64,000 bases of DNA, taken from contig NZ_CP160631.1 in assembly GCF_040783975.1 (NCBI RefSeq), positions 2,914,001 through 2,978,000 of the forward strand. Direction: 5' to 3'. Below the pieces are notes generated by a model that searched no databases, was not told where the DNA came from, and worked only from the letters and a program-made list of their open reading frames with translations. Both the position numbers and the translations under genes were made by a program. The stretch is from Pantoea sp. Ep11b (GTDB lineage: Bacteria > Pseudomonadota > Gammaproteobacteria > Enterobacterales > Enterobacteriaceae). This document shows positions 6,696 to 24,027 of this stretch, one piece after another (the first letter of the stretch is position 1; every line of letters starts with the position of its first letter).

Positions 6696-7910
6696 ATGAA
6701 AATTGTTAAGGCGGAAGTCTTTGTCACCTGTGCAGGCAGGAACTTTGTCACGCTGAAGATCACCACCGATCAGGGCCTGACCGGCGTGGGTGACGCCACA
6801 CTCAACGGCCGCGAGCTGCCGGTCGCCTCCTACCTGAAAGATCATGTCTGTCCGCAACTGATCGGCCGCGATGCCCATCAGATCGAGGATATCTGGCAAT
6901 ACTTCTATAAGGGCGCTTACTGGCGTCGCGGTCCCGTAACGATGTCCGCGATCTCTGCCGTCGATATGGCGCTGTGGGATATCAAAGGCAAAGCCGCAAA
7001 TATGCCGGTTTACCAGCTGCTGGGCGGCGCTTCCCGTACCGGGGTGATGGTCTATTGCCACACCACCGGCCACTCTATCGATGAAGTCATGGATGATTAC
7101 GCCAGGCACAAAGAGCTGGGTTTTAAAGCGATTCGCGCGCAGTGCGGCGTGCCGGGAATGAAAACCACCTATGGCATGGCGAAAGGCAAAGGGCTGGCGT
7201 ATGAACCGGCGACCAAAGGCAACTGGCCGGAAGAGCAGCTCTGGTCAACCGAGAAGTATCTCGACTTCACCCCAAAACTGTTCGCCGCCATCCGCGATAA
7301 ATTTGGTTTCGATGAGCATCTGCTGCATGACATGCACCATCGCCTGACGCCGATTGAGGCGGCCCGCTTTGGCAAGAGCGTGGAGGACTATCGCCTGTTC
7401 TGGATGGAGGATCCAACGCCTGCGGAAAATCAGGCCTGCTTCCGCCTCATCCGTCAGCACACCGTGACCCCGATTGCGGTGGGCGAAGTGTTCAACAGCA
7501 TCTGGGATTGCAAGCAGCTGATTGAAGAGCAGCTGATCGACTATATCCGCACCACCATTACACACGCAGGCGGCATTACCGGCATGCGGCGTATCGCTGA
7601 TTTTGCCTCGCTTTATCAGGTACGCACCGGCTCGCACGGTCCTTCCGATCTCTCGCCGATCTGCATGGCGGCGGCGCTGCACTTTGACCTCTGGGTGCCG
7701 AATTTCGGCGTGCAGGAGTATATGGGCTTCTCTGAACAGATGATGGCGCTGTTTGATGCGAGCTGGCGCTTTGACCAGGGCTACATGCATCCTGGCGACA
7801 AGCCCGGCCTCGGCATCGACTTTAACGAAAAACTGGCGGCGAAATATCCCTATGAGCCTGCTTATCTGCCGGTCGCCCGTCTTGAAGATGGCACCCTCTG
7901 GAACTGGTAA
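6696..7910 (+). CDS. rspA: RspA, mannonate dehydratase family protein (enolase superfamily)
   Basis: A 404-residue enolase-superfamily protein of the ManD/RspA group. Metal ligands are visible in order: Asp in LLHDMHH, Glu in FWMEDPTP and Glu in AVGEVFN. Family members dehydrate D-mannonate (or D-gluconate) to 2-keto-3-deoxygluconate, many of them weakly. Here the loop reads HGPSDLSP; as I recall, the proline marks the low-activity RspA-type subgroup, while efficient ManD enzymes have alanine. So the physiological substrate may not be mannonate. First gene of a five-gene same-strand cluster; rspB starts 11 bases after its stop. Confidence 0.9.
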
Positions 7911-7920
7911 GGAGAAACGG

Positions 7921-8931
7921 ATGAAAAGCGTAGTGATTGAACAGCCGGGAAAACTGGCGATCGCGGAGCGCCCCCTGCCTCAACCGGCGTCGGGCGAAGT
8001 GCGGGTAAAAGTGGCCTGTGCCAGCATCTGCGGCTCGGATATCCATATCTGGCACGGCCACAACCCATTCGCCAGCTATCCCCGGGTCATCGGCCATGAG
8101 TTTTTTGGTGTGATCGATGCGGTGGGCGACGGGGTTGACGCGGCCCGTCTGGGTCAGCGCGTTGCGGTCGATCCGGTCATCAGCTGCGGGAGCTGCTATC
8201 CCTGCTCTGTCGGGCGACCCAATGTCTGCACCACGCTGCAGGTGATCGGCGTGCACCGCGATGGCGGCTTCAGCGACTATGCGCTGGCGCCCGCCCGCAA
8301 TGCCTGGCCGCTGCCGGAAACGATCCCCGATCGGCTCGCCAGCCTGATTGAACCATTCACTATCGCCGCCAACATCACGGCGTTTCTTCAGCCGCGTCCC
8401 GACGATATCGCCCTGATCTACGGTGCCGGTCCGATGGGACTTACCGCCGTGCAGGTGCTGAAAGGGGTCTATGGCGTGAAGAGCGTGATGGTGGCAGATC
8501 GGCTGCCGGAACGGCTGGCACTGGCCGCGCAGAGCGGTGCGGACCAGTGCTTCGATAACGGTGACATCCCGCTGGCGGAGCAGCTCAGCGGTGTGCAGCC
8601 GACGCTGATTATTGACGCCGCCTGCCAACCCGCCATTCTGGCTGAAGCGGCGGCGCTCGCCTCACCGGCCGGTCGCATCGGCCTGCTGGGCTTCTCTGGC
8701 GAACCCTGCAGCATTACGCAGCAGAGCCTGACCAGTAAAGAGCTGTCGCTGTTTACCTCGCGCCTTAACAGTAACCGCTTCCCACAGGTCATTGGCTGGA
8801 TGGAACAGGGGTTACTCCAGCCCGAAAAACTGGTGACACACGCCTTTCCGCTCAGGGAGGTGGAACGCGCGATGACCCTGTTTGAAAAAGATCCGCGCAC
8901 CTGCTGCAAAGTGATCCTGCAAATGGATTAA
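7921..8931 (+). CDS. rspB: RspB, zinc-dependent alcohol/sugar-acid dehydrogenase
   Basis: A 336-residue medium-chain dehydrogenase. Catalytic zinc ligands are Cys37 (ASICGSD) and His59-Glu60 (VIGHEFFG). A structural zinc site is formed by Cys89, Cys92, Cys95 and Cys103. The Rossmann motif GAGPMG sits near residue 168. Relatives oxidise L-gulonate, L-galactonate or similar polyols. I chose ATG 7921, preceded by AAGGAG, over an in-frame start inside rspA. The pairing with rspA matches E. coli rspAB. The exact substrate is unknown; the context says a sugar acid. Confidence 0.9.
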   Translation: MKSVVIEQPGKLAIAERPLPQPASGEVRVKVACASICGSDIHIWHGHNPFASYPRVIGHEFFGVIDAVGDGVDAARLGQRVAVDPVISCGSCYPCSVGRPNVCTTLQVIGVHRDGGFSDYALAPARNAWPLPETIPDRLASLIEPFTIAANITAFLQPRPDDIALIYGAGPMGLTAVQVLKGVYGVKSVMVADRLPERLALAAQSGADQCFDNGDIPLAEQLSGVQPTLIIDAACQPAILAEAAALASPAGRIGLLGFSGEPCSITQQSLTSKELSLFTSRLNSNRFPQVIGWMEQGLLQPEKLVTHAFPLREVERAMTLFEKDPRTCCKVILQMD

Positions 8932-9007
8932 CAGCCGCTGTGCCGAGGCGGTGCCGGTACATTTTCGCGGGCACCCTTAAAACGATAAAACAGACCCCGG
9001 AGTTTGT

Positions 9008-10291
9008 ATGTTCAAGAACCTGCGCTGGACCCTCGTTTTACTGCTGTTCCTGGTTTACATGATTAACTATCTGGACCGCGTTGCCCTGTCGCTGACGGTG
9101 CCGCTGGTTGAAAAAGATCTGGTGATTAATGCTGAGCAGTTCGGCATCATTTTCGGCAGCTTCTTCTTTGGCTACGCCCTGTTTAATTTTGTCGGCGGTC
9201 TGGCCACCGATCGCTTCGGCCCCAAAATCGTGCTGGCCGTGGCGGTGGGGGCCTGGTCCATTTTCTGCGGCATGACTGCCCTCGCGACCGGCTTCTGGTC
9301 GCTGCTGATTCTGCGCGTGCTCTTCGGCATGGCGGAGGGGCCGATCTGCTCGTCGGCTAACAAAGCGATCAACGGCTGGTTTCCCAGGAAACAGGCCGCG
9401 ACGGCTATGGGGCTGCTGAGTGCCGGTTCACCGCTGGGAGGAGCTGTCGCTGGCCCGATCATAGGCTATCTGGCGCTGGCCTTCGGCTGGCGACCGGCCT
9501 TCGTCATTGTCTGCTGCATCGGTCTGGTCTGGATGGCATTCTGGCTCTTTTTTGCTGCGGATAATCCGGAGAAAAGTAAACGGGTAACGGAGGAGGAACG
9601 TCAGCTGATCGCGCGCCTGAAGAGCGCGAACCCGAATGATGAGGTCGATCTCTCAGAGACACCGCATCCCTTTGGCTACTACCTGCGCCAGCCGATTATC
9701 CTGGTCACCGCCTTCGCCTTCTTTTGCTACAACTATATCCTGTTCTTCTTCCTGAGCTGGTTCCCGGCCTACCTGGTGCAGGCGCACGGGCTGGATATTA
9801 AATCGATGAGTATCACGACGATGATTCCGTGGATCGTGGGCTTCGTCGGCCTGGCGCTGGGCGGCTGGATCTCCGATAAAATTTTCAACCTTACCGGCAA
9901 ACTGTTGTTGTCGCGCAAAATTGTGCTGGTGGTCTCACTGCTGGCAGCCGCAATTTGTGTGGCACTGGCGGGTACGATAAAAGAGGTGGTTCCCGCCGTA
10001 ATGATGATGTCGGTGTCGATCTTCTTTCTCTATATCACCGGCGCGATCTACTGGGCCATTATTCAGGATGTGGTCCACAAGAGCCGCATCGGCAGCATCA
10101 GCGGTTTTATCCATCTGACAGGGAGTCTCTCCGGCATCATCGGGCCTGTTGTCACGGGCTTTATTGTTCAGCACACCGGTAAATTTGACAGCGCCTTCGT
10201 ACTGGCCGGGTGTGTTGCTGCGCTGGGTGCTTTCCTGGTGCTGTTTGTCATTCGCAGTCCGAAGATCCGCGATAAACCGGTTTCGGTCTGA
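9008..10291 (+). CDS. ydfJ: YdfJ-like MFS transporter (anion:cation symporter family)
   Basis: A 427-residue, 12-helix major facilitator. The N-terminus LFLVYMINYLDRVALSLTVP is typical of the hexuronate/galactonate/phthalate-type symporters (ACS family, as in ExuT, GudP and DgoT). The motif LATDRFGPKIVL is MFS motif A. It lies between rspB and a mannitol-dehydrogenase-family gene, so it most likely imports the sugar acid these enzymes handle. In E. coli ydfJ also sits beside rspA. A GC-rich hairpin follows the stop codon. Confidence 0.85.
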   Translation: MFKNLRWTLVLLLFLVYMINYLDRVALSLTVPLVEKDLVINAEQFGIIFGSFFFGYALFNFVGGLATDRFGPKIVLAVAVGAWSIFCGMTALATGFWSLLILRVLFGMAEGPICSSANKAINGWFPRKQAATAMGLLSAGSPLGGAVAGPIIGYLALAFGWRPAFVIVCCIGLVWMAFWLFFAADNPEKSKRVTEEERQLIARLKSANPNDEVDLSETPHPFGYYLRQPIILVTAFAFFCYNYILFFFLSWFPAYLVQAHGLDIKSMSITTMIPWIVGFVGLALGGWISDKIFNLTGKLLLSRKIVLVVSLLAAAICVALAGTIKEVVPAVMMMSVSIFFLYITGAIYWAIIQDVVHKSRIGSISGFIHLTGSLSGIIGPVVTGFIVQHTGKFDSAFVLAGCVAALGAFLVLFVIRSPKIRDKPVSV

Positions 10292-10317
10292 AGTTATTTC
10301 TGACAGAACCTTTATTT

Positions 10318-10334
10318 GGGGCGCTTTTCGCCCC
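10318..10334 (+). terminator. Weak hairpin between the ydfJ-like and ydfI-like genes
   Basis: GGGGCG pairs with CGCCCC around CTTTT, followed by CTTTGCC rather than a clean T run. It may attenuate the last two genes of the cluster. Confidence 0.35.
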
Positions 10335-10354
10335 CTTTGCCATAAGGACGGATT

Positions 10355-11860
10355 ATGTTACAGATCGACCGCCTGCCCCCGGCGATCAGGCGCCCCGCTT
10401 ACGATCGCAGTCAGTTAAAAACCCGCATGGTGCACATCGGTTTCGGTGCCTTTCATCGCGCCCATCAGGCCCTGTGCAGCGATAAACTGGCTGACCAGGG
10501 CAGCGACTGGGGATACTGCGAAGTGAATCTCAACAGCGGCGCACTGATTCAGGCTCTGCGCGAGCAGCATCTCCTCTATACCCTGACGGAGATGGCCGAT
10601 GACGCATTGCACACCCGGGTAATTGGCGTTATTACCCAGGCGCTGCACGGTAAAAGTGATGGAATTGAGGCGGTGATCGAGGCGATGTCTCAGCCCGATG
10701 TCGCGATTGTTTCGATGACCGTGACCGAGAAAGGCTACTGCCACCAGCCGGCCAGTGGTCACTTAAACCCGGATCACCCCGATATTGTGCATGACCTGCA
10801 GAACCCGGACGCACCGCGCTCACTGCCGGGACTGATTCTGGCCGCGATTCGCCGCCGCCGGGATCGGGATCTGCCGCCCTTCAGCGTGATGTCCTGTGAC
10901 AACATGCCGGAGAATGGCCATGTCACCCGCAACGTTATTGTGCAGCTGGCCCGGCTTCAGGATCCAACGCTGGCCGATTATATTCAGCAGCAGATCACCT
11001 TCCCGTCCACCATGGTGGATCGCATCGTTCCGGCCATGACCGATGCCGCGTTTAGCGCACTCAGCGCGCGCCTGGGTTCCTGCGATCCGGTCGCCGTGGA
11101 AGCAGAGCCGTTTTTTCAGTGGGTCATTGAAGATAACTTCGTCAGTGGTCGTCCGGCCTGGGAGAAAGCGGGCGCAGAGCTGGTCAGCGATGTCCTGCCT
11201 TATGAAGAGATGAAACTGCGCATGCTGAATGGCAGCCACTCTTTTCTGGCCTATCTCGGCTTCCTGGCGGGCTATGAGCACATCAGCGACTGCATGGCCG
11301 ATCCCCACTTTCGTGCCGCCGCCCGTTCACTGATGGTGGATGAGCAGGCCCCTACCCTGCGCACCCAGGGTGTGGACCTTAACGCCTATGCCGATTCGCT
11401 GATTGCCCGTTATGAGAATCGCGCGATCAAACACCGCACCGGACAAATCGCCACCGACGGCAGCCAGAAGCTGCCTCAGCGTCTTCTCGACAGCCTGCGC
11501 TGGCATCTGCAGCGCGGTAACGACTGCGACCTGCTGCTGCTGGGAGTGGCGGGCTGGATGCGCTACGTCGGCGGCGTGGACGAACAGGGCCAGCCGATTG
11601 AGATCCGCGATCCGATGAAGAAACAGCTGGCGGAATGTGTGGCCGCCAGCGAAGAGGGCGAGGCGCGCGTGCGCGCACTCCTTTCCCTGCGCGAGGTGTT
11701 TGGCGAGGATCTGCTGCAGAATGCTGATGTAGTCGCGCGGCTGACCGACTGGTATCAGCAACTCTCTGAACAGGGCGCGCGCGCGACGGTGCATCACTGC
11801 CTCAATCGCCGCCAGCAGCGGGTTAACAAAGGGCTGGCGCAGATGCAGCGTGCTGATTAG
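10355..11860 (+). CDS. ydfI: YdfI-like mannitol dehydrogenase family oxidoreductase
   Basis: A 501-residue polyol/sugar-acid dehydrogenase. The N-terminal nucleotide-binding motif is HIGFGAFHRAHQA. The catalytic signature KLRMLNGSH, with Lys near residue 287 and Asn and His just after, matches UxuB, UxaB and mannitol 2-dehydrogenase. The likely reaction interconverts D-mannonate and D-fructuronate, or a similar pair, with NAD. Slightly longer than UxuB-type enzymes (about 486 residues), with an extended N-terminus. Its place beside the RspA-type dehydratase and the repressor gene fits a short sugar-acid pathway. Confidence 0.86.
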   Translation: MLQIDRLPPAIRRPAYDRSQLKTRMVHIGFGAFHRAHQALCSDKLADQGSDWGYCEVNLNSGALIQALREQHLLYTLTEMADDALHTRVIGVITQALHGKSDGIEAVIEAMSQPDVAIVSMTVTEKGYCHQPASGHLNPDHPDIVHDLQNPDAPRSLPGLILAAIRRRRDRDLPPFSVMSCDNMPENGHVTRNVIVQLARLQDPTLADYIQQQITFPSTMVDRIVPAMTDAAFSALSARLGSCDPVAVEAEPFFQWVIEDNFVSGRPAWEKAGAELVSDVLPYEEMKLRMLNGSHSFLAYLGFLAGYEHISDCMADPHFRAAARSLMVDEQAPTLRTQGVDLNAYADSLIARYENRAIKHRTGQIATDGSQKLPQRLLDSLRWHLQRGNDCDLLLLGVAGWMRYVGGVDEQGQPIEIRDPMKKQLAECVAASEEGEARVRALLSLREVFGEDLLQNADVVARLTDWYQQLSEQGARATVHHCLNRRQQRVNKGLAQMQRAD

Positions 11861-11915
11861 ACTGACACTTTCCCATCGCGCTGGTCCCGGCCAGCCGTAA
11901 TATGGATATTGCTGC

Positions 11916-12602
11916 ATGTCGATCGCCTATACCATTACAACCAGCGAACCGGTGAATCAGCAGATTTACCGCTATCTGCGCAAAGATATTGTCACCTGCG
12001 CAATTGAGCCGGGTTCGCTGCTCTCAGAAAAAGAGGTTTCCGCGCGCTTTAACGTCTCGCGCCAGCCGGTGCGGGAAGCATTTATTAAGCTGGCCGAAGC
12101 GGGACTGGTACAGGTATTGCCGCAACGTGGCACCTTCGTGCGGAAAATTTCTGCCAAACGGGTCGCGGATGGCCGCTTTATCCGTGAAGCGGTGGAAATC
12201 TCGGTCGTGCGTCGTTCAGCGCAGGAGATTACGGCAGCATCGCTGATGGCACTGGAGCATAATCTGCAGCTGCAGCGCATGGCCGCATCACGTCACGACA
12301 GCCAGGCTTTTCTCAGCCTCGACGATGAGTTTCATCGCCTGATCGCGGAAAGCATTGACTGCAGGCTCGCCTGGGAAACGGTGGAGAACATCAAAGCCAC
12401 CATGGACCGGGTTCGGTTTCTGACGCTGAGTGAAGTCTCGCCGCCGGAAAAGCTGATTGAGCAGCATGAAGAGATCTTTGCCGCGCTGACGTCTCACGAT
12501 GCGGAGGCGGCCGAAACGGCCATGCGTCTGCACCTGCAGGAGATGATCTTTTCTATCACCCCGATTGCCGAGCGCAACAGCGCCTGGTTTGAAACCCCCT
12601 GA
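11916..12602 (+). CDS. rspR: RspR (YdfH)-like GntR/FCD transcriptional regulator
   Basis: A 228-residue regulator of the FadR subfamily. The N-terminal winged helix (residues about 12-80) contains SEKEVSARFNVSRQPVREAF. A C-terminal FCD ligand-binding domain follows, with the metal-type His motif DDEFHRLIAE and a late His in MRLHLQEM. In E. coli, RspR represses rspAB and lies next to ydfI. As the fifth gene of the cluster it is probably autoregulated and releases the operon when a sugar acid binds. It converges on thiD across a short hairpin. Confidence 0.86.
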   Translation: MSIAYTITTSEPVNQQIYRYLRKDIVTCAIEPGSLLSEKEVSARFNVSRQPVREAFIKLAEAGLVQVLPQRGTFVRKISAKRVADGRFIREAVEISVVRRSAQEITAASLMALEHNLQLQRMAASRHDSQAFLSLDDEFHRLIAESIDCRLAWETVENIKATMDRVRFLTLSEVSPPEKLIEQHEEIFAALTSHDAEAAETAMRLHLQEMIFSITPIAERNSAWFETP

Positions 12603-12608
12603 GCCAGG

Positions 12609-12636: not shown

Positions 12637-12645
12637 TCTGCATCA

Positions 12646-13446: not shown

Positions 13447-14230
13447 GATGCGCCTCCAGCGTCCAGAGTGCATCGACAAACGCCGTGGCAAAACTGCCCG
13501 GCGCGGCGGCCTGAGATGCTGCCCTTTCTCCCGCTGACGACATCACCTGACAGGCGGCGGCCACATTTAACAGCCGATCGCCGGGCAGGCTGCTGAACCC
13601 TGCCACGACCGCAGAGAGCGCACAGCCGGTTCCCACCACCCGCGTCATCAGGGGCGAGCCGCCGCGAAGCGCAAAGATCCGCGTGCCATCGGTGGCGTAG
13701 TCCACTTCACCGCTGACAATGACCAGCGTGCGCCAGCGAATGGCGAGCTGACGGGCGGCATCGAGCGCCGCATCCGCCTGGTGCAGCGTATCCACGCCGC
13801 GTCCGCCACTGGCCTGCTTTGCCAGCGCCAGAATCTCTGAAGCGTTGCCGCGGATCACAGCCGGTTCCTGGCTCAATAACTGCTGGCAGAAGTCACTGCG
13901 CAGCGTCAGAGCACCGACGGCGACCGGGTCGAGCGTCCAGGGGGTGCCTGCCTCTCGGGCGGCGCTGACGGCGGCCTGCATCGCCTGCTGGCGCTCGCGG
14001 GTCAGGGTGCCGACATTGATGAGGAGCGCATCGGCAAAGCGGCTGAACTCAGCGGCTTCGTCAGCATCGATGACCATCGCCGGCGAGGCGTTCAGTGCAA
14101 GCAGCACGTTGGCGGTGAAGTTCTGTACCACCTCATTGGTCATACAGTGGACCAGCGGTGAGTGACGGCGAAAAGCGTGCAGACAGGGCGCGAAGTGCGC
14201 GGCAGAAAGGTGTTGAGATGGCTGTGACAT
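13433..14230 (-). CDS. thiM: ThiM, hydroxyethylthiazole kinase
   Basis: A 265-residue kinase that salvages 4-methyl-5-hydroxyethylthiazole to its phosphate. Family motifs include [20 protein letters not shown] near the N-terminus, NASPAMV, and the C-terminal [15 protein letters not shown] anion-hole loop. Two ATG codons stand in tandem; the second is best spaced from GGGAG, so I use 14230. First gene of thiMD; a TPP riboswitch lies about 50 bases upstream in the leader, so expression falls when thiamine diphosphate is plentiful. Confidence 0.94.
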
Positions 14231-14267
14231 CATAGCTCCCAACCGGCGAACAAGAAGGCGAATGCGG

Positions 14268-14360
14268 TCAGGCATCAGACTTCCCTACGCTGGCATTATC
14301 CAGATCAGGTAATACGGGTATTTCTCAGCCTTCACAAAGAAGGGCACCCCGAGTCGTTTA
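14268..14360 (-). promoter_or_regulatory. TPP riboswitch (THI element) of thiMD
   Basis: On the minus strand the conserved aptamer elements appear in order: GGGGTGCCC, GGCTGAGA, ATACCC, ACCTGATCTGGATAAT and GCCAGCGTAGGGAA. These are the pyrimidine- and pyrophosphate-sensing arms of the TPP aptamer. The boundaries given are approximate. It precedes thiM and should repress translation or transcription when thiamine diphosphate is bound. Confidence 0.95.
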
Positions 14361-14789
14361 ACTAAATTCAGTCAGTCAGGATAGTAATGTCAGCAGGCGG
14401 TCCTGTAAACGCATACCGCACGATTACGGCATCACTCCCGGACTCCGTTGGCGTCCTCACTCACCGGCAGAAACCGCGCGGGCAGTCTGCGCCGCCCCGC
14501 TTCTGCCACATCCGGATTCGCGAAGAAACCCGTAACACTTTACCAGGCGATCCCGTTTATTTCGCGCAGCTTTCACCTGTCGCGTTCCAGATTACCTATA
14601 CAGGTTAACTGTCTGATCAATCTGGGCATTTATCTTTTTCACACACTACACGCGTTGCCGCACTGGACTTTTTTCACGCAACGCAGAAAAAGAGTGCGCC
14701 AGTTTACAGGACAAACACAAAACGGTTAAAGAAAGCACCGACCTGTGCTATTCACAGTGCAGGATAAACCTGCCAGGGAGGCTGACGGA
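14361..14789. other. Intergenic region between the thiM leader and the XylR-type gene
   Basis: The region holds the promoter of thiMD (leftward) and that of the XylR-type regulator (rightward). An imperfect palindrome, ACCTATACAGGT, lies around 14593-14604. Two overlapping short open frames (14387-14608 and 14448-14729) show no recognisable protein and poor start contexts. I see no gene here. Confidence 0.5.
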
Positions 14790-15971
14790 ATGGAGAAGAC
14801 CTTTCATATCGCGCTCTTATTTAATGCGAATAAGGCGTATGACCGCCAGATAATCGAGGGCGTGGGTAAATACCTGCAGCGTTCCCGTACCCTGTGGGAT
14901 GTTTACATCGCAGACGATTTCCGCAGTAACATTGACAGCATCAATGGCTGGAACGTGGATGGTGTAATTGCTGACTGCGATGTGCTGGCGGTTGAACAGG
15001 AACTCAATAAGCTGACCATGCCTGTTGTCGGTATTGGTGGCTCCTACTCCTCCGGAAAGGCTTTTCCGAATCTGCACTATGTGGCTACTGATAACTACAG
15101 CCTGGTCGCGACCGCGCTGGAGCATCTGATTAACAAGGGTATGGAACATTTTGCCCTGTACAGCTTCCCTGTATGTCCGGATAAACGCTGGGCAACCGAA
15201 CGTGAGAACGCATTTGCTGCGATCCTGCAGCAAAAGGACCGGACCGGATTAATTTATCGCGGCCATGATATCACTATCGATAACTGGCAGACGGCGCAGA
15301 ACCAGTTGGCTGACTGGGTAACGTCTCTGCCAGAGGGCACCGGCATCGTCGCGGTGACAGATTCCCGCGCCAGACATTTACTGCAGATCTGTGAAAATAT
15401 AGGGATCCCGGTGCCGGAAAAGTTAGCCATTATTGGCATCGACAATGAAGAGTTAACGCAACATCTGTCGGGCATCAGTCTCTCCTCCGTGGTTCATGGC
15501 GCAATAAAAATGGGTTCCTGCGCGGCTGAAATTCTTCATAAACTCTTAAAGGGAGAGTCATTGCCGTTGCAGCGCGTGGTGGTTCCCCCGCTGAAACTGG
15601 TGGAACGCCGTTCGAGCAATTATCGTTCTATTGTCGATCCCTATGTTATCCGGGCAATGAACTTTATCCGCGATAATGCCTGTAAGGGTATCAAGGCTGA
15701 ACAGGTCATCAGTTTTACCGGTATTTCACGAACCAGTCTGGAAATCCGTTTTAAAGCGCATCTGGGTGCGACCATTCACACCGTCATTCATAATGAAAAA
15801 ATCGAACATGCCCGCAACTTACTCATCACCACAGATCTCCCGATGAAAGAGATCTCACTGATTGCGGGTTATCCCTCTGTTCAGTATTTCTATCTGGTCT
15901 TCAGGAAAACCTATAATCTGACCCCTAAAGCCTACCGCAGCCGTTATCAGGAGCAGAATCGTGCCAGTTAA
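14790..15971 (+). CDS. XylR-type transcriptional activator (LacI-like sensor + AraC HTH)
   Basis: A 393-residue protein strongly resembling E. coli XylR, the xylose-responsive activator. The N-terminal LacI/ribose-binding-like domain starts HIALLFNANKAYDRQIIEGV and includes VGIGGSY and RWATERE. The C-terminal AraC-type double helix-turn-helix spans residues about 290-390 (DNACKGIKAEQVISFTGISR to YPSVQYFYLVFRKTYNLTPK). I chose the ATG 8 bases after GGGAGG; an upstream in-frame start lacks a site. It sits tail-to-tail with a porin gene and beside alpha-glucuronidase genes, not beside xylAB. It may be a dedicated copy sensing xylose or an aldouronate. I cannot tell whether this is the only xylR in the genome. 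Confidence 0.87.
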   Translation: MEKTFHIALLFNANKAYDRQIIEGVGKYLQRSRTLWDVYIADDFRSNIDSINGWNVDGVIADCDVLAVEQELNKLTMPVVGIGGSYSSGKAFPNLHYVATDNYSLVATALEHLINKGMEHFALYSFPVCPDKRWATERENAFAAILQQKDRTGLIYRGHDITIDNWQTAQNQLADWVTSLPEGTGIVAVTDSRARHLLQICENIGIPVPEKLAIIGIDNEELTQHLSGISLSSVVHGAIKMGSCAAEILHKLLKGESLPLQRVVVPPLKLVERRSSNYRSIVDPYVIRAMNFIRDNACKGIKAEQVISFTGISRTSLEIRFKAHLGATIHTVIHNEKIEHARNLLITTDLPMKEISLIAGYPSVQYFYLVFRKTYNLTPKAYRSRYQEQNRAS

Positions 15972-16005
15972 CTGGCTGAATCTATCCGTCAGCGAAACCG
16001 TATTT

Positions 16006-16048
16006 TCTGGCGGGAAGGCACGTTTAAAATCTACGCCGGCCCGCCAGA
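16006..16048. terminator. Inverted repeat between convergent XylR-type and porin genes
   Basis: TCTGGCGGG (16006-16014) pairs perfectly with CCCGCCAGA (16040-16048) across a 25-base loop. There is no T tract, so this may be a weak bidirectional terminator or an mRNA-end stabilising structure. Confidence 0.4.
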
Positions 16049-16057
16049 GAGAATGCT

Positions 16058-16771
16058 TCAGAACAGATATTTCAGGCCGATACGCATCCGGTACTCTTTA
16101 TCGCCGTTTCCTGCCCGGCCCAGATCGGAAATATCACCAAAAGGTTTCCAGTGTGAGTCATACTGGTAGCTGAGATAGAGCGTATGCTGCCACATCTCTT
16201 TTTTGTTATTTCCGAAGTGAAAATCGTTCTGCTTCTGCAGATAGACCGGGTTATAGTTAACAAATAACTTATCCGTGACCTGCCAGTTCAGCCATAGATC
16301 ATATTCGTGCGAGCTGTTTCGTTGCAGACTGTCATCCAGGCAGGGTGTTTTATAGTTGTAGTGATAGTAGCGATACCCGGCCATCACGCCGAACTGAGGG
16401 CTGAGTTGATAATTAAACTTCAGGTAGGGATCGATGTGGCTGCCCTTGTGCCCCCAGCTGAAGACCATGTCGGGAATAAACGAAAACCGGTCTGTCAGCG
16501 GAATCGCGTAGGTGACCTCTACCTCTGAGTAGTTGTTCTTAAATTCAGTGTAATTACTGCCGTTGTTGATCGTGTTCTGATATGAGAAAGAAACACTGTC
16601 ATTAATCACGGTTGAAATCTGCAGTCGGGTCTGGAACATTTTACTGCCGGTGGTATAGGCTTCACGAATATCCACGCCTGTGGATGAGAAATCTAACGCA
16701 AAGGCAGAAAGTGGCATAGCAGAAATCATTACTGCACTGGCTAACGCCTGTTTTTTCATCATCGCTTTCAT
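16058..16771 (-). CDS. KdgM-family oligosaccharide porin
   Basis: A 237-residue outer-membrane protein. The signal peptide spans about residues 1-25 (KKQALASAVMISAMPLSAFA). The mature part has alternating beta-strand patterns and ends in Phe (RMRIGLKYLF), the usual C-terminal signature of outer-membrane barrels. Family resemblance is to KdgM/NanC, 12-stranded porins that admit acidic oligosaccharides such as oligogalacturonates and sialic acid. Here it neighbours glucuronoxylan-degrading genes, so uptake of aldouronates is the likely role (inference). It has its own promoter: a terminator follows the upstream GH3 gene. AGGG lies 8 bases before the chosen ATG. Confidence 0.85.
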   Translation of the reverse strand: MKAMMKKQALASAVMISAMPLSAFALDFSSTGVDIREAYTTGSKMFQTRLQISTVINDSVSFSYQNTINNGSNYTEFKNNYSEVEVTYAIPLTDRFSFIPDMVFSWGHKGSHIDPYLKFNYQLSPQFGVMAGYRYYHYNYKTPCLDDSLQRNSSHEYDLWLNWQVTDKLFVNYNPVYLQKQNDFHFGNNKKEMWQHTLYLSYQYDSHWKPFGDISDLGRAGNGDKEYRMRIGLKYLF

Positions 16772-16847
16772 CGTCTTTTCCCTTTATGGTAGTAATCCTT
16801 TTTATGGTTATAGAATAACCGAAAGCGCATGAATATAATTTTATCAT

Positions 16848-16894
16848 TTTTTACTGGCTAATTATTAAATATAGCAACTGTGACTGTGTGCAAA
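16848..16894 (-). promoter_or_regulatory. Predicted promoter of the KdgM-type porin gene
   Basis: On the minus strand, TTGCTA (plus positions 16872-16877) serves as -35. An A-rich -10 candidate (TAAAAA) lies about 18 bases downstream. A CRP half-site TCACA overlaps upstream (16879-16883); its partner half is poor. The 12 bases TAGCAACTGTGA at 16872-16883 recur exactly upstream of the alpha-glucuronidase gene. A palindrome GGTTATAGAATAACC lies in the leader at 16806-16820. Confidence 0.5.
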
Positions 16895-16933
16895 ATATAA
16901 AAAACAAGAGAGCCATTACGTTAAAGGTTCAAT

Positions 16934-16958
16934 TAAAAAAACCGCTCCGGAGAGCGGT
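16934..16958 (-). terminator. Terminator of the GH67-GPH-GH3 operon
   Basis: On the minus strand ACCGCTC pairs with GAGCGGT around TCCG, followed by six T residues. It ends the operon about 40 bases after the GH3 stop and separates it from the porin gene. Confidence 0.85.
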
Positions 16959-16997
16959 GAATAGAAAACAGAGGCAGGATAGATCTGGCTGGAATAA

Positions 16998-19391
16998 TCA
17001 GGTTGTGGATGGTGAGCGATAACTGATGGTGGCATGACTCTCCATTGACCAGTGCTCATCCAGAATGCGCAGCGGCCCTGCCAGCGTAATCGTCTGCTGA
17101 AGCACAATATTATCTGAGGCTTCACCAATCATTAAAATAAAGTCTCCCGGCTCTACCCTGCGCCTGCCCTGATTGTCCGTAAAGTTAAGCATATCTGCCG
17201 GAAGCGTAAAGCTGATTTCAGCAGACTGCGCCGGGGCCAGCCGAATACGCTGAAACGCTTTTAACTCTTTAACCGGGCGCACCAGTGAAGCCTGTATATC
17301 GCGGACATAGACCTGAATGACGGTGTCGGCCTCCCGCTCTCCGCTATTTTCCACCGTCACGGTAAAGGTCACCGCCTCATCCATAGTGAAAATCATCTTT
17401 GGTAAAGTGAGGGCCGAAAGTCTGAATAACGAGTAGCTCAGGCCGTAACCAAAGGCGTAGCGCGGTGGAAAATGAAAGGCGACCGGGGTGCCGCTGCTCT
17501 TCATTTTATGATTATAAAAATAGGGCATCGCCCCCACGTTTCCCGGCACTGAGACGACCAGTCTGCCACCGGGACTCTGCCTGCCCGTCAGAATGTCTGC
17601 AATGGCGCAGGCCCCCTCCTGCCCGGCCTGCCACGCCATCAGAAATCCCGCCAGCCGATCTTCAAGCCCCTGCAGGCTGTAGGGGCGGCCGCTGGTCATA
17701 ACCACGATAGTCGGAACGCCCGTCTCCACCACCGCCTCTAGCAATTTCTGCTGTACGCCAGGCAGGTTCAGGGTATCGCTGTCCGATCCCTCGCCTACCG
17801 TGCCACTCTGGAACAGCCCGGCCAGATCGCCCACAAAGCAGATCGCCAGCGTCGACTCTTGCGCAGCCTGAACCGCGTCGGCGATCAGCGATTCATCGCG
17901 CGACACCGGTGAGACGGCCAGCGGCCTGCCGACATCCCCCGGAAACACCGGGGTTCCTGCGGCACGCTCCGTCAGAATATGGCACCCTTTCCGATACGTG
18001 ATCCGGCACTCTGGCAGCGCCTGCTGCAGAGCAGTTAATGGCGTGGTGACCTGGCTGGTATTCGCCTCGGTATCATTCAGAATCAGGTGCACGGGAAAAC
18101 TGTATCCCGATAACAGCGCCAGTGGGTCATCCGCCGTCGGGCCGATGACCGCGACCGACTCCAGTGCTGACGCCCGCAGCGGTAAGGTGCCGTCATTCTC
18201 CAGCAGGATCATGGATTCCAGTGCCACCTGCCGGGCAACCTGACGCGCCCGCACCGACTGAAAATCGGGCCGGGCATCCGGGATAAAGGGATTGTCGAAA
18301 AGTCCCGTTCTGAATTTCTCCGTCAGGATTCTGGCGACGATCTGATCGATTTTCTCCTCCGCGATCAGCCCCCGTGCCAGCGCCTCTGTCAGGGCCGCCG
18401 CGCAGTCATCTTTCGGCAACTCCACATCGAGGCCGGCGTTAAAGGCACTGGCAGCTGATTCGGCGCGATCGGCAGTGACGCCATGATGCTGATGCAGCAG
18501 GCTGACGCCGCCATAATCGGCTACGATCAGCCCGTCGAATCCCCAGCGGTTGCGTAATATTTCGGTCAGCAGGAAGGCATCGTTATGGCAGGGCTGATTA
18601 TCGATATCATGGTAAGCGGGCATCACCGATCCCGCATTCGCCAGCTTAACCGCCATCTCAAAAGGCAGCAGAAAGATATCATTAAGTTCTTTGAACCCCA
18701 GATGAACCGGTGCGTGGTTACGTGCCCCCTCGCTGAACGAGTGCGCCGCATAGTGTTTCAGCGTCGCCAGCAGATCACGTTGCTCTCCCTGCAGCCCCCT
18801 CACATATTCTGTCGCCATAATCCCGACCAGATAGGGATCTTCGCCAAACGTCTCTTCTGTACGGCCCCAGCGCAAATCGCGCGACACATCAAGAACCGGC
18901 GCCAGCGCCTGACGACAGCCAATGCTGCGTGCCTCTCTGCCAATACAGTCCGCCATCGCCTTTATCAGCCCGGGATGCCAGGTGGAGGCCATATTCAGCG
19001 ATGACGGAAACAGGGTCGCCCCCATACACATCAATCCTGTCAGACACTCCTCATGAAACATCGCCGGAATACCGAAACGGCCTGCTGCCATAATGCGTTT
19101 TTGCAGCGCATTAAACAGAGCAATCCCGGTTTCAGCATTCAGCATCCCGGAACCAAAGGGCCGCGTAATCTGCCCCACCCCCAGCGCCATCTTCTGTTCA
19201 AACGATGCCTGCGCGTCCCGGTGGCTGAACTGGTCACTGGCATCCTGCCGTTCGGTGACCGCTCCCTCATCTGAAACCATCAGCCAGTAACCATGCATCT
19301 GCGCGATTTTCTCGTCCAGTGTCATCTGGCTGAGCAGATAGCGGGCACGCGCCTCCGCAGGCAATGAGGGATCCTGATAATGACGATCCAT
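16998..19391 (-). CDS. Glycoside hydrolase family 3, probable beta-xylosidase/beta-glucosidase
   Basis: A 797-residue enzyme without a signal peptide, so cytoplasmic. The (beta/alpha)8 domain contains DLRWGRTEETFGEDPYL and LKHYAAHS, which shape the -1 subsite, and the nucleophile Asp292 in GLIVADYGGV. A beta-sandwich domain (about residues 390-610) and a C-terminal fibronectin-like domain (about 670-780) complete the usual GH3 layout. It hydrolyses non-reducing-end beta-linked sugars. Beside an alpha-glucuronidase and a XylR-type regulator, beta-1,4-xylosidase on xylo-oligosaccharides is most likely. Last gene of the operon; 24 bases separate it from the transporter gene. Confidence 0.87.
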   Translation of the reverse strand: MDRHYQDPSLPAEARARYLLSQMTLDEKIAQMHGYWLMVSDEGAVTERQDASDQFSHRDAQASFEQKMALGVGQITRPFGSGMLNAETGIALFNALQKRIMAAGRFGIPAMFHEECLTGLMCMGATLFPSSLNMASTWHPGLIKAMADCIGREARSIGCRQALAPVLDVSRDLRWGRTEETFGEDPYLVGIMATEYVRGLQGEQRDLLATLKHYAAHSFSEGARNHAPVHLGFKELNDIFLLPFEMAVKLANAGSVMPAYHDIDNQPCHNDAFLLTEILRNRWGFDGLIVADYGGVSLLHQHHGVTADRAESAASAFNAGLDVELPKDDCAAALTEALARGLIAEEKIDQIVARILTEKFRTGLFDNPFIPDARPDFQSVRARQVARQVALESMILLENDGTLPLRASALESVAVIGPTADDPLALLSGYSFPVHLILNDTEANTSQVTTPLTALQQALPECRITYRKGCHILTERAAGTPVFPGDVGRPLAVSPVSRDESLIADAVQAAQESTLAICFVGDLAGLFQSGTVGEGSDSDTLNLPGVQQKLLEAVVETGVPTIVVMTSGRPYSLQGLEDRLAGFLMAWQAGQEGACAIADILTGRQSPGGRLVVSVPGNVGAMPYFYNHKMKSSGTPVAFHFPPRYAFGYGLSYSLFRLSALTLPKMIFTMDEAVTFTVTVENSGEREADTVIQVYVRDIQASLVRPVKELKAFQRIRLAPAQSAEISFTLPADMLNFTDNQGRRRVEPGDFILMIGEASDNIVLQQTITLAGPLRILDEHWSMESHATISYRSPSTT

Positions 19392-19415
19392 GAATAACCT
19401 CTGTGTGATTGAAAC

Positions 19416-20978
19416 TTACCGATCCGACGTAGCTGGCTCTGCGCTGTTTGCGTCTTTCCTTTCGGACGGATCAGGGCTGGAGTGAGGATGCGCGCGGCTT
19501 TCACCCTGCCAGATATTTTCATATTTAATTCCGGTCAGGCTTTCAATTACAGCGCGTGTCCCGGCAGGGCTGTTGGTGAGGTCGCCTTCTGTCTCTTTCA
19601 GGCGCGCCACTTCCTCAAGCAGGATCTGATGCGTGCGGCGATCTAACGCAAAGCGGGTAGAGACGAGAAACGCGAGAAGCAGTAACCCCAGCGTGCCCAG
19701 GCAGACAATACCCACAACCGTCTCTGTCGCTAAGGTTGTCTGCGTCGCAGCCCCTGAGACAAAGCCGTTCATTTCGAGAAGTGCGCCCACAATCAATGCG
19801 GATGCCCCCAGGGTGCTTTTTCTCGCAAAGGTCATCATGCCGGCAAAAATGCCTTCACGACGTCTTCGCGTGATCACTTCATCCACGTCGGGAATAAACG
19901 GATAGATATTCCAGGTCAGGTAGACATAGCCACCCTTAAATAACTGGTAGATAAAGGCGATGCCATAGAGCGCCGGAATCATCCAGGCAGGCTGATAAAA
20001 ATAGAAAGCGGTAAATGCCAGCATGCATAGCATCACCATCAGATAACAGAGCTGCAGTAATCTGGCGGGTTTATAGCGGATAAAAGCCCAGGCAAAAAGC
20101 GCCGTTCCCCAGCCGAAGCAGAAGATCCCTACTGACATCAGGTTCGCAGCCAGGGTCGCATCCTGATGAAGGGCAAAGATGATGAAAAAAGCAAAGACGG
20201 AACTCAGCAGATCCAGTGCGGTAAAGGAGAGAAGATACATCAGCAGAAGCTGTCTGAAGGCTTTGACCTTCAGGCTTGTGAGCATCTCTCTGATAACCGA
20301 TGAAACGACTTTCCTTCCGGATCTGCACGGTTCCGGACGCCGTGCGTCAGCCGCGTCGTCGCGCTCCCAGGTTGTCAGATAGGTAATTATCACCGCAATC
20401 ATCGTGAGCACCGTAAAGATGACACCATTAATCAGGAACGCCTGCGCAGATTGATTGCCTGATAATTTAAACAGCTGCCCCGGAATAAAGGTAGCCAGTG
20501 AGGCGGCCAGTCCGGCAAAAATAATCCTTGAAGCTGAGAGCCGGGTTCGCTCTTTATAGTCGCTGGTCATCTCCGAGGCGATCGCTTCATAGGGAATAAT
20601 GATCATGGCCGCAACCACTTCCATTAACAGATAGGTGGCGAGGTAATAAAAATAGTGCATCCCCTCCACCCACATCAGACTGAAGATAATCAGCAGCGGG
20701 CAGCAGAGTAATAAAAAAGATCGGCGACGGCCAAATCGCCGTCCGATACGGGTATTGCCGATATTATCCGTCAAATAGCCAACCAGCGGACTGATAATCG
20801 TATCCAGGATTCGGGCAATAAAGAGGATTGAACCGGCTTGCATCGGGCTTAAGCCGCAATAGGTGACATAGAAAAACATCAGCCAGGCACCCATTACGGC
20901 AAAAGCGCCACTGCCGAGTATATCGGTGACACCATAACCCATATAATTTTTTAAGGTTATCTTACGAGGTTCTTTCAT
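19416..20978 (-). CDS. GPH-family sugar:cation symporter (probable oligosaccharide/glycoside importer)
   Basis: A 520-residue membrane protein of the glycoside-pentoside-hexuronide family (MelB, XynT and YicJ relatives) with about 12 helices. Helix 1 carries GYGVTDILGSGAF, and the loop motif PLVGYLTDNIGNTRIGRRFGRRRSFLL is family-typical. It has an extended, charged C-terminal tail of about 80 residues beyond the last helix, longer than MelB. The ATG at 20978 has GGAG 6 bases upstream; the earlier ATG does not. It lies between the GH3 and GH67 genes and probably imports aldouronates or xylo-oligosaccharides intact. Confidence 0.86.
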   Translation of the reverse strand: MKEPRKITLKNYMGYGVTDILGSGAFAVMGAWLMFFYVTYCGLSPMQAGSILFIARILDTIISPLVGYLTDNIGNTRIGRRFGRRRSFLLLCCPLLIIFSLMWVEGMHYFYYLATYLLMEVVAAMIIIPYEAIASEMTSDYKERTRLSASRIIFAGLAASLATFIPGQLFKLSGNQSAQAFLINGVIFTVLTMIAVIITYLTTWERDDAADARRPEPCRSGRKVVSSVIREMLTSLKVKAFRQLLLMYLLSFTALDLLSSVFAFFIIFALHQDATLAANLMSVGIFCFGWGTALFAWAFIRYKPARLLQLCYLMVMLCMLAFTAFYFYQPAWMIPALYGIAFIYQLFKGGYVYLTWNIYPFIPDVDEVITRRRREGIFAGMMTFARKSTLGASALIVGALLEMNGFVSGAATQTTLATETVVGIVCLGTLGLLLLAFLVSTRFALDRRTHQILLEEVARLKETEGDLTNSPAGTRAVIESLTGIKYENIWQGESRAHPHSSPDPSERKDANSAEPATSDR

Positions 20979-21028
20979 AATCAGCTCCATGCAGTAGGGT
21001 GGGCACGATTGCCCACCGTCCTCAAACG

Positions 21029-23017
21029 TTATTTATATATTTTCCGTCCCTTGTTATCGTCAATTCCCGACTTGCGGTAAAAATAGGTATTAATTCTGTC
21101 ACGCCATTCGCTGGCATTCTTTTTCTGTTTCTGAAGACGCTCAGCGACGTGCTCATGAATATCAGAGGGCATTAAACCCGCCAGCGTTTGCCAGCGATGA
21201 ATAAACTCGTCTACGGCCTCAACGCCAGAAAAATGGGTGTCGTAAATATGCTGAATGACGCTGTTACCATTTTTCAGACGGTGGTCGTAACGCAGAAAAT
21301 GGAAAAAGAGGATTAATTCATCAGGGCAACGCTGCAGATCGTTATAAAGCTGGCAATTTTCTGGCGCATATAACGAGACATAGCCCGTGCCGCTTTCGAG
21401 CGTGCGATCCACGCCCAGGCCATTGCGATCGGCATAGTGATGCGTTCCCCATACGTCATATTCATAGCCGTCAATGTTTGGTCCGTAATGATGATGGGGA
21501 TTGACCATCCAGCCCACGCCCAGCGGCGCGGTGTAATCTTCGTAGATCTGACCGCTGGACAGCAGCATCTCACTGACCGTGCGGGTCACCTCTGCATCTG
21601 TCCCGAAGGTTAACTGGCTCCACTCCCTGGCGAGCCCCTCAGCTTCGATAGCTGGATCCCAGAGAAGCCGGCCATAGCCATAGAGATTGGCCTGCGCCAG
21701 CAGATGTCCGGTCCAGAAGCGGTCGTCGCCGGTATTAGCGACCGCAGTTACACCGGCATGTGGCATTCCGTTTGCCCGCCCGCAGACCAGATCTTCGATG
21801 GTGGAGGGGCCGGATGAGAGTCGGGTATCAAACGCCAGAATCGTCTTCCACTGCGGCACCAGCCAGAACAGGTCGATCTGCTGCCCGGTATACTCCTGGG
21901 TGATTTGCAGTTCGAGCACCTGATTGGTGGCAGGCATTGCCCCCAGCAGCGGCGAAACCGGTTCACGCACCTGAAAATCCATCGGGCCGTTTTTGATCTG
22001 CAGAATCACGTTTTCACGGAACTGACCATCCAGCGGCGCGAAATGTTCACAGGCGGCGCGCGCCCGGTCGGTCTGACGATCGCGCCAGTCCTGCTGGCAG
22101 TTGTAGACAAAGCAGCGCCAGAAAACCAGTCCGCCGTGGGGAGCCAGCGCCTCGCCGAGCATGTTGGCCCCGTCCGCATGGGTTCGGTGATAGGTAAAGG
22201 GGCCGGGACGATGCTCTGAGTCCGCTTTCACCACCACGCCACCGAAATCGGGAATGTCGCGATAAAGCGCATCAAAACAGTGACGCCACCAGGCTTTGAC
22301 CTGCGCATCGAGTGGATCGGCTGTCGTTAAATCCCCCAGCTCTATCGGACTGGCGTAATTCACGGATAAAAAGAGCTGAATCCCCCATCCGCGAAAAAGG
22401 TCACACAGCTCAATCAGCGCCTGCCGGTATTCCTGCGTAATCAGCCGTGTCTCTACCTGATGAACGTTGACGTTATTGATGGTCAGCGCATTGATGCCCG
22501 CGCTGGCCAGCAGGCGCGCATAGCGGCCTGTTTTCTCATGATCGCCCGTGAATCTGTTATCAGCAAAGAACAGTGACCGGCCAGCATAGCCGCGCTCGAT
22601 GGTGCCATCCATGTTATCCCAGTGATTCAGCATCCGGATAGTGATGGCGGGAGAGTCGGAGATGTACGTGCCGCAGGAAAAATCGTTCAGCCGGAGACGT
22701 TTTAACAGCTCAAACCAGCCATAGAGTAATCCGGTCATCTCACTGGCCGAGACTTCAATAACCTGTTCATCGTGACGCAGAGTAAAACTTCCGGCCCTGC
22801 GCCCATCGCCGTCTAAGCTGAAAATGAATCTTTTACCCTTTTCTGCCATCGTCGGTGAAAAAGAGAGAAACTCTTTTTTCAGATTGTCGAGCACAGGTGA
22901 CGCTATATCCGGGAAAAGGATAGCGTTAATATATAGCGCGTTGTCGTTGAATAACGATCTGATATTCTCCCGTTCGACTAACCAGCAGAAAGAGTCATTT
23001 TCTTTTACCTGTTCCAT
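21029..23017 (-). CDS. aguA: Alpha-glucuronidase, glycoside hydrolase family 67
   Basis: A 662-residue GH67 enzyme that removes (4-O-methyl)-D-glucuronic acid from the non-reducing xylose of aldouronic acids. Catalytic residues are seen in family context: acid Glu268 in [20 protein letters not shown], and bases Asp330 (PLDGQF) and Glu352 (VREPVSPLL), with the conserved [13 protein letters not shown] between them. There is no signal peptide, so it acts in the cytoplasm on imported oligosaccharides. First gene of a three-gene operon with the GPH symporter and GH3 enzyme; a CRP-type promoter precedes it. The symbol follows common use for GH67 genes. Confidence 0.93.
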
Positions 23018-23085
23018 TAATTTTTACCTCAGACTTTCCATGTCTGATTTATGCAGCACCGCCTCTGTTTGCCGCAATTACTTTT

Positions 23086-23131
23086 TTTAAAACTCCCGTT
23101 CCGTTTCTTAGCAACTGTGAATCAGATCACC
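23086..23131 (-). promoter_or_regulatory. Predicted CRP-dependent promoter of the alpha-glucuronidase operon
   Basis: A near-perfect CRP site TGTGA-ATCAGA-TCACC lies at 23116-23131. On the minus strand it runs into a -35-like TTGCTA (23109-23114), a 17-base spacer and a -10-like TTTAAA (23086-23091). The site centre would be near -44, close to class II geometry. The 12-mer TAGCAACTGTGA (23109-23120) is shared with the porin promoter. Confidence 0.6.
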
Positions 23132-23521
23132 TGAATAAAGAGATATTATGGCGGTAATGTCACCCGGGCACGCAAACAGAGACTCAAGGTTGCGAGTAAT
23201 AAAACGGAAAGCGTGACAGGTCATGATCGGTCGCCTTTGCACGCCTCCTGCTGCAATTCAGCATGGCGTCAGGCTGAGAAAACCGGGTTGCATCGCCTCT
23301 TTACTATGATCCTGATCAACACCGCGTGGTGCAAAAAGAGGCCTAATGCTGCGGGCCAGTGAAATACCTCTTTAGAGGTATCACCCGTAAAGTCATTTCC
23401 AGAACGCCTTTTTGTTGCAGTGGCCGCGATGGCTGTCGGTAAATATCGGGCTTCACATTAAGTTTTACGCACCCGGCCAGGTTATTTCAGAAACTGAACT
23501 TCATACTATTCAGGACGTATG
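23132..23521. other. Long non-coding stretch between the aguA promoter and a possible small ORF
   Basis: No recognisable gene on either strand. It contains the FNR/NarL-type sites listed separately and would serve as the leader of the possible ORF at 23522 if a rightward transcript starts near 23354. Confidence 0.5.
23295..23381. promoter_or_regulatory. FNR-like box and NarL/NarP 7-2-7 site in a gene-poor region
   Basis: ATGATCCTGATCAA (23306-23319) differs from the FNR consensus at one base. TACCTCT-TT-AGAGGTA (23365-23380) is an exact NarL/NarP 7-2-7 inverted pair of consensus heptamers. GCCTCTTT (23295-23302) and AAAGAGGC (23335-23342) form a further inverted repeat around the FNR-like box. 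A -10-like CCTAAT lies at 23342-23347, the spacing expected if FNR acted at -41.5 on rightward transcription. Regulation itself is inference. Confidence 0.5.
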
Positions 23522-23719
23522 ATGCGATTTTCAGCGATTATTCCACACTGTCATCGATGGCAGAATATTATTATCGAGCGGCGCGGTGCTATCGCTCCCA
23601 ATGGCAGATATTATCTCTCCACCTCTCTTTCCGCCTGGTGTTCAGGCTGCGGTGAAACTATCCATCGTATCTATTATCGTGATATCAGCGATCGCCAGGC
23701 GCGACGCTGGCTGGGATGA
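23522..23719 (+). CDS. Possible small protein of unknown function (65 residues)
   Basis: I do not recognise this ORF. AGGA lies 6 bases before ATG 23522; another in-frame ATG stands directly before it. The predicted protein has an early Cys-His (PHCHRW), a CSGCGE motif near residue 40 and several aromatic residues, which might suggest metal binding. There is no membrane segment. The case for it is the start context plus the FNR/NarL-type sites about 150-200 bases upstream; against it are its size and ordinary composition. It could be a decayed remnant or chance. Confidence 0.33.
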   Translation: MRFSAIIPHCHRWQNIIIERRGAIAPNGRYYLSTSLSAWCSGCGETIHRIYYRDISDRQARRWLG

Positions 23720-24013: not shown

Positions 24014-24027
24014 CAGTCTGCGGCAGA

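What the first reader, a model, noticed from the sequence alone, without database searches (positions are those of the whole stretch)
14790..23131. Compact aldouronate (acidic xylo-oligosaccharide) uptake and degradation locus with a KdgM-type porin
Seen: a XylR-type activator, a KdgM-family porin, a GH3 glycosidase, a GPH symporter and a GH67 alpha-glucuronidase lie together. Both glycosidases lack signal peptides, and all five are inserted in a core-genome backbone. Known: GH67 acts only on short aldouronates and KdgM/NanC porins pass acidic oligosaccharides. Inference: this is a self-contained route (outer membrane to cytoplasm) for methylglucuronoxylan fragments made by other organisms or plant decay. 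A KdgM-type porin serving glucuronoxylan products is, to my knowledge, not an established role.
Basis: partly seen in the sequence, partly recalled or inferred. Interest (0 to 1): 0.75.

Follow-up and report, generated by a model that had tools for sequence, protein, structure and literature searches.

The report
Acidic xylan fragment uptake locus, Pantoea
A plant-associated bacterium carries a small gene set that looks built to take in and digest acid-decorated fragments of wood xylan, including its own outer-membrane channel of a family tied so far to other acidic sugars; the parts are ordinary, but the combination and the channel's likely cargo are unusual and easy to test.

Summary
Window 14790-23017 holds a XylR-type activator, a KdgM-family porin, a GH3 glycosidase, an MFS_2/GPH-like symporter and a GH67 alpha-glucuronidase. 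The reading is largely supported, with corrections. (1) Not one operon: gh67-symporter-gh3 ends in a terminator-like hairpin, and the porin has its own upstream region. (2) This XylR is a second copy; a canonical xylR lies beside xylA and xylFGH. (3) A XylR half-site model built only from the xylA/xylF region ranks the gh67 promoter first of 127,962 window positions. The porin promoter has a weaker tandem site and a 12-mer shared with gh67, and no KdgR-like box. (4) The porin is predicted as a NanC/KdgM-like 12-strand barrel, in a clade apart from OmpL and NanC, and was found with GH67 in three same-genus genomes. (5) Uronate catabolism sits next door (6696-12602) and elsewhere (uxaC), so the route is not self-contained. 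(6) The enterobacterial GH67 sampled form one clade grouped with Bacillota. Protein records from Klebsiella and Citrobacter show GH67 and a related symporter but no close copy of this porin. Substrate and inducer are untested. New variant of a known kind.

The parts
14790..15971 (+). XylR-type AraC-family activator, here called XylR2; paralogue of the canonical xylR at G000:C1:430396-431556 (55% identical)
16058..16771 (-). KdgM-family outer-membrane porin, predicted 12-strand barrel, signal peptide by eye
16837..16877 (-). candidate tandem XylR-type site (21-nt spacing) in the porin upstream region; overlaps the 12-mer TCACAGTTGCTA (16872-16883) shared with the gh67 promoter
   Evidence: rank 5 of 127,920
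16931..16958 (-). intrinsic-terminator-like hairpin with T run after gh3; a similar hairpin stands at the same place in G045 and G027
   Evidence: the scan is loose: 20 found, 9.3 expected
16998..19391 (-). GH3 glycosidase, beta-xylosidase-like, no signal peptide seen
19416..20990 (-). MFS_2 / GPH-like cation symporter
21029..23017 (-). GH67 alpha-glucuronidase, no signal peptide seen
23074..23114 (-). XylR-type operator-like site before gh67: strong proximal half-site 23074-23093, degenerate distal half-site 21 nt away
23116..23131 (-). CRP-like site, one mismatch, conserved in three genomes
   Evidence: 5 such matches in the window, 1.63 expected
6696..12602 (+). neighbouring hexuronate module: ManD-type mannonate dehydratase, Zn-dependent dehydrogenase, MFS transporter, fructuronate-reductase-like protein, GntR regulator; exact CRP-like match at 6602-6617

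Best explanation
This is a scavenging locus for short aldouronates (4-O-methylglucuronate- or glucuronate-decorated xylo-oligosaccharides) released from glucuronoxylan by other organisms. The porin lets the acidic oligosaccharide through the outer membrane. The symporter brings it into the cytoplasm. GH67 removes the uronic acid from the non-reducing-end xylose, and GH3 splits the rest to xylose. Xylose goes through the xyl pathway; glucuronate through UxaC, the window's fructuronate-reductase-like protein and a mannonate dehydratase. CRP and a XylR-type activator (the local XylR2, the canonical XylR, or both) switch on gh67-symporter-gh3 and probably the porin. Shown: gene content, order, conservation, operator-like sites, fold prediction, lower-pathway genes. 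Inferred: substrate, direction of transport, inducer, porin cargo.
Against: No biochemical or expression data. The three genomes share the locus by descent, so they are close to one observation. GH3 is below the cut-off of the xylosidase/arabinosidase model (741.5 of 1050) and the symporter below that of the GPH model. The porin's XylR-type site is weak alone (best half-site rank 12, other strand); in G027 the gh67 region ranks 7 in the tandem scan, at another place; promoter-like matches in the region equal chance (9 found, 9.0 expected). GH67 and symporter records from Klebsiella and Citrobacter come with no close copy of this porin.
Confidence: 0.75

Rival explanations
1. The locus is mainly for neutral xylo-oligosaccharides (symporter plus GH3); GH67 only trims occasional decorated fragments, and the porin is a general helper.
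For: The operator-like site is of xylose-regulator type; the GH3 is closest to xylosidase models.
Against: GH67 heads the operon, and the porin family with described cargo carries acidic sugars (passages).
Confidence: 0.15
2. The porin serves pectin, alginate or another acidic oligosaccharide and is only a neighbour of the xylan genes.
For: The porin looks like a separate transcription unit; relatives at about 30% sit in sulfoquinovose, GH88 and sialic-acid loci.
Against: No KdgR-like box near it; a 12-mer shared with the gh67 promoter (4 of 1000 shuffles reach that length); found with GH67 in the three same-genus genomes.
Confidence: 0.08
3. GH67 and its partners act on another alpha-glucuronide, such as a plant or exopolysaccharide fragment, not on xylan products.
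For: No activity was measured here.
Against: GH67 is narrowly known for aldouronates (recalled); catalytic residues conserved; xylose-type operator-like site.
Confidence: 0.04

Closest known systems
Bacillota GH67 loci (Geobacillus, Paenibacillus and kin)
   Different: 0 of 80 loci (flanks up to 10 kb, some cut by contig ends) hold a relative of this symporter at E <= 1e-20; 2 of 80 hold a GH3 relative. Their ABC transporters are recalled, not checked
E. coli yih (sulfoquinovose) cassette with the OmpL porin
   Same: KdgM-family porin beside GPH-type symporters and a glycosidase (passages)
   Different: Other sugar and regulator; the window's porin is 31-34% identical to the porins of the yih loci compared, lies in another clade and is below the OmpL model cut-off
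KdgM and NanC porins
   Same: Same Pfam family and predicted fold
   Different: 22% and 26% identity in the fold alignment; pectin and sialic-acid cargo
GH67 and related symporter on record from Klebsiella grimontii and Citrobacter arsenatis; GH67 also from Kluyvera sp.
   Same: Same GH67 clade; symporters 49% and 48% identical; the Citrobacter symporter and the unnamed GH67 P0137 have the same longest-contig length, 531746
   Different: No close copy of the porin found (word-limited search); neighbourhoods could not be read
Candidatus Stammera GH67 (tortoise beetle symbiont)
   Same: Stammera row falls in the enterobacterial GH67 clade, on a long branch; described as digestive (passage)
   Different: Plasmid gene; on the Stammera-like L091 it lies beside a polygalacturonase-like gene (by eye), with no porin or symporter hit

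Membership tests
KdgM porin family (PF06178, TC 1.B.35) | Pfam model over curated cut-off | tested here: met
   110.5 bits against 22
KdgM porin family (PF06178, TC 1.B.35) | 12-strand barrel like NanC/KdgM | tested here: met
KdgM porin family (PF06178, TC 1.B.35) | selectivity for acidic sugars | not testable with these tools
   needs electrophysiology or uptake
OmpL equivalog (NF007434) | score over curated cut-off | tested here: not met
   129.3 against 288
GH67 | Pfam domains over cut-off | tested here: met
   475.3 and 298.9 bits
GH67 | catalytic acid and bases (E285, D364, E392 in Geobacillus; recalled) | tested here: met
   aligned to E268, D347, E375
GH67 | activity on aldouronates | not testable with these tools
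   no assay
GPH symporter (TIGR00792) | score over curated cut-off | tested here: not met
   137.6 against 231.35; the MFS_2 Pfam model is met
GH3 beta-xylosidase/arabinosidase (NF052329) | score over curated cut-off | tested here: not met
   741.5 against 1050; GH3 domains met
XylR | XylR N-terminal domain plus AraC HTH | tested here: met
   PF22177 132.9, PF12833 65.8 bits
XylR | orthologue of the xylose-operon regulator | tested here: not met
   paralogue; the canonical copy lies beside xylA and xylFGH and is 83% identical to E. coli XylR

The most novel reading that the evidence does not exclude
A GH67-linked clade of KdgM-family porins (Pantoea/Erwinia) is a dedicated outer-membrane channel for aldouronates, and a duplicated XylR (XylR2) has been retuned to sense the acidic xylan fragments rather than xylose, giving enterobacteria an aldouronate route by porin plus symporter instead of an ABC transporter or a TonB receptor.
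Probability: 0.35. Interest if true: 0.6.

Novelty: new variant of a known kind. Interest (0 to 1): 0.45.

Why it matters
Glucuronoxylan is a major hemicellulose (recalled), and full-length GH67 is rare in enterobacteria: the own genome and one more of 392 family genomes. How Gram-negative bacteria without TonB-type xylan systems take in its acid-decorated fragments is, to my knowledge, poorly mapped. This locus names a concrete channel, symporter and regulator that can be knocked out one by one, and would extend the KdgM family to another class of acidic sugar. It also raises the question of what happens to the 4-O-methyl group of the released acid; by eye, no candidate gene stands in the locus.

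Tried and rejected
Pectin control of the porin: a KdgR-type palindrome (consensus recalled) was sought with up to 3 mismatches; 2 matches in the window, none near the locus, 1.66 expected. OmpL orthology was rejected by model cut-off and tree. Descent of GH67 with the rest of the order: of 7 matching genomes of 394 (own included, one weak), the other five fall on a long separate branch, while enterobacterial GH67 group with Bacillota; the root is a midpoint, so the direction of transfer is inferred.

Klebsiella neighbourhoods: I tried to find which unnamed genus is Klebsiella by comparing stretches with named plasmid-collection records. The closest was 89% over 3.6 kb, and I judged none to be Klebsiella, so the GH67 context there stays unread. 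A plasmid search with the Klebsiella symporter gave 96 records, all under 60% identity. The Pfam scan of relatives and the symporter structure search added little.

Literature: ten searches. KdgM plus glucuronoxylan gave one paper, whose KdgM passage is about Vibrio alginate. KdgM/porin/xylan/glucuronidase gave 26 papers, 20 listed; judged from the listing and from passages of two of them, none is on a KdgM porin for xylan. Searches on Enterobacter, Mixta, Klebsiella and Pantoea (9 of 9 listed; 10 of 2,419; 12 of 113; 12 of 60) listed nothing on this locus. Subscription papers are mostly not held.

Rows dropped: in the GH67 tree L166 was dropped because its frame breaks at 44 residues, and L091 was not included. 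The porin tree kept 37 of 37 rows. Neighbourhoods were read for 18 stretches around porins, two of them (L150, L151) outside the 30 loci that one search returned; the first 7.7 kb of L135 read as unknown bases. Eight further stretches were fetched but their gene order was not read. My notebook has slips: entry 2 counts three unnamed porin clusters (two besides the own), and says the porin and GH67 share 3 of 61 genomes although the porin was searched in 394 relatives; entry 3 gives 77-93% for a block that is 77-99%.
Full report
Observation. The five genes are present as described. Family scans give XylR N-terminal plus AraC HTH, KdgM, GH3, MFS_2 and GH67, each over its Pfam cut-off. Two curated models are not met: GPH (137.6 of 231.35) and xylosidase/arabinosidase (741.5 of 1050), though the latter is the best GH3 match. 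The closest solved structures by sequence are a xylose operon regulator, NanC then KdgM, a beta-xylosidase and an alpha-D-glucuronidase; for the symporter only distant MFS proteins. GH67 catalytic residues (Geobacillus numbering recalled) are conserved.

Layout. On the minus strand gh67, symporter and gh3 follow each other with gaps of 38 and 24 bases. After gh3 comes a hairpin with a T run, and a similar one stands at the same place in the other two genomes. The terminator scan is loose (20 found, 9.3 expected), and the promoter scan finds no more than chance (9 found, 9.0 expected). The porin starts 226 bases after the gh3 stop and has its own conserved upstream block. xylR2 is convergent with the porin. 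I read this as three transcription units, not one; transcripts were not measured.

Conservation. GH67 is in 3 of 61 same-genus genomes, own included. In a sample of 392 genomes of the family 5 match at E <= 1e-3: the own one, one 300-kb genome with a full copy (G342, Stammera-like by the gene content of its small contig, by eye), and three with matches of 62-67 positions only. In 394 genomes of the order 7 match: the own one, five at 39-41% identity and one weak. Two other same-genus genomes carry the whole set in order between ahpCF and thiM/thiMD. G045 is taken as Pantoea deleyi because its contig length, 3986422, equals that of protein P0127, and G027 as Candidatus Pantoea alvi because 4087626 equals that of P0003. 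Identities in G045 are XylR 99.5, porin 99.6, GH3 93.0, symporter 84.9, GH67 92.9; in G027 72.8, 61.3, 77.2, 72.5 and 72.8. A further record labelled Pantoea anthophila has the porin (81%) and GH67 (76%) with the same longest-contig length, 4047471.

Regulation. The genome has a second, canonical xylR beside xylA and xylFGH, 83% identical to E. coli; XylR2 is 54-55% identical to it in both halves. From the xylA-xylF intergenic region of E. coli and of this genome I took six half-sites (their role as XylR sites is recalled; their conservation is seen). The matrix ranks 23074-23093, before gh67, first of 127,962 window positions on both strands, 18.65 bits with the next at 13.52, and first also in L090 (18.65) and L089 (12.62). 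Scanning pairs at the 21-nt spacing of the xylF site ranks gh67 first and the porin upstream fifth of 127,920. In L090 they rank 1 and 2; in L089 the porin ranks 1 and the gh67 region only 7, at another place on the other strand. At spacings 19, 20, 22 and 23 the gh67 region ranks 3, 1, 7 and 41, and the porin region 19, 8, 3 and 2, partly at other places. The porin has no strong single half-site (rank 12), nor does xylR2 upstream (rank 18). The two promoters share the 12-mer TCACAGTTGCTA, which with up to one mismatch occurs only there in the window; 4 of 1000 shuffle pairs give a shared word as long; in G027 nine bases are shared. The motif was found by comparing the two promoters, so the 0.36 expectation is not an independent test. 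A CRP-like site with one mismatch lies at 23116-23131; the window has 5 such matches with 1.63 expected. No KdgR-like box is near.

Lower pathway. xylA and xylFGH (xylB and uxaB/exuT-like genes by eye), uxaC, a UxuA and, in the window at 6696-12602, a ManD-type dehydratase (733.1 bits, cut-off 550), a Zn-dependent dehydrogenase (560.2, cut-off 376), an MFS transporter closest to the galactonate-transporter model but below its cut-off (343.5 of 395), a fructuronate-reductase-like protein just below cut-off (602.3 of 603) and a GntR regulator with no model met. That reductase has two other matches in the genome at E <= 1e-20, 26% and 29% identical. The module stands beside thiMD in all three genomes, and an exact CRP-like match lies at 6602-6617. 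No GH10 xylanase was found; other xylanase families were not tested.

Origin. In a tree of 36 GH67 the sampled enterobacterial ones (Pantoea, Erwinia, Citrobacter-linked, Kluyvera, Klebsiella, one Stammera, and unnamed metagenome rows) form one clade (100/100) grouped with Bacillota, while five others of the order lie on a branch of 2.28 changes per column. A single gain from a Bacillota-like source is the simplest reading; the root is a midpoint and the Stammera row is long. In 80 Bacillota GH67 loci no symporter relative was found at E <= 1e-20. G+C is 0.50 in xylR2, 0.46 in the porin, 0.51 in the symporter, 0.54 in gh67 and 0.58 in gh3, against 0.57 for the window.

Literature. The KdgM channel is described as acidic-sugar specific (PMC4849052, passages). 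Vibrio KdgM/N are linked to alginate (PMC12125979 and PMC11493405, passages). ompL is induced with the yih genes on sulfoquinovose (PMC12608037, passages). Stammera alpha-glucuronidase is described as digestive (PMC12905250, passage). E. coli xylose operons need XylR and CRP-cAMP (PMC8534289, passages). PMC4827864 was seen in passages only. No held paper links a KdgM porin to glucuronoxylan by the searches.

Verdict. A real, conserved, plausibly co-regulated aldouronate locus: a new variant of a known design (porin, symporter, cytoplasmic glycosidases, local activator) with a probable new cargo for the porin. The substrate is inferred, not shown.

Noticed in passing
L091, L166, L182, L183, L185 against L165, L181, L184: GH67 of Candidatus Stammera plasmids (7 fetched of 34 'Candidatus' records, plus the Stammera-like L091): 5 of 8 carry 10-15 in-frame TGA codons, 51 of 61 of them where the window's GH67 has Trp; 3 of 8 have none. 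L166 and L185 give the same pattern. Looks like TGA=Trp in some Stammera lineages only. Literature was not searched for this beyond one paper.
   Followed up: partly
window 12501-26300 against L090: Mosaic divergence from the genome taken as Pantoea deleyi: the xylR2-porin block (14301-17000) is 98.0-99.7% identical in DNA, the gh67-symporter-gh3 block (17001-23000) 77-99%, the intergenic stretch before gh67 73-77%, flanks 88-99%. Suggests allelic exchange within the island.
   Followed up: partly
window 6696-12602: Hexuronate module with an exact CRP-like match upstream, probably the lower arm for released glucuronate.
   Followed up: partly
window 45095-47074: Formaldehyde-detoxification-like gene pair (by eye). 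Would matter if the 4-O-methyl group of the released acid is removed oxidatively; no demethylase candidate was seen in the locus.
   Followed up: no
L134, L136-L138, L140: OmpL-like porins beside PTS genes and GH88-like hydrolases (by eye) in several unnamed Enterobacteriaceae, perhaps glycosaminoglycan-fragment loci.
   Followed up: no
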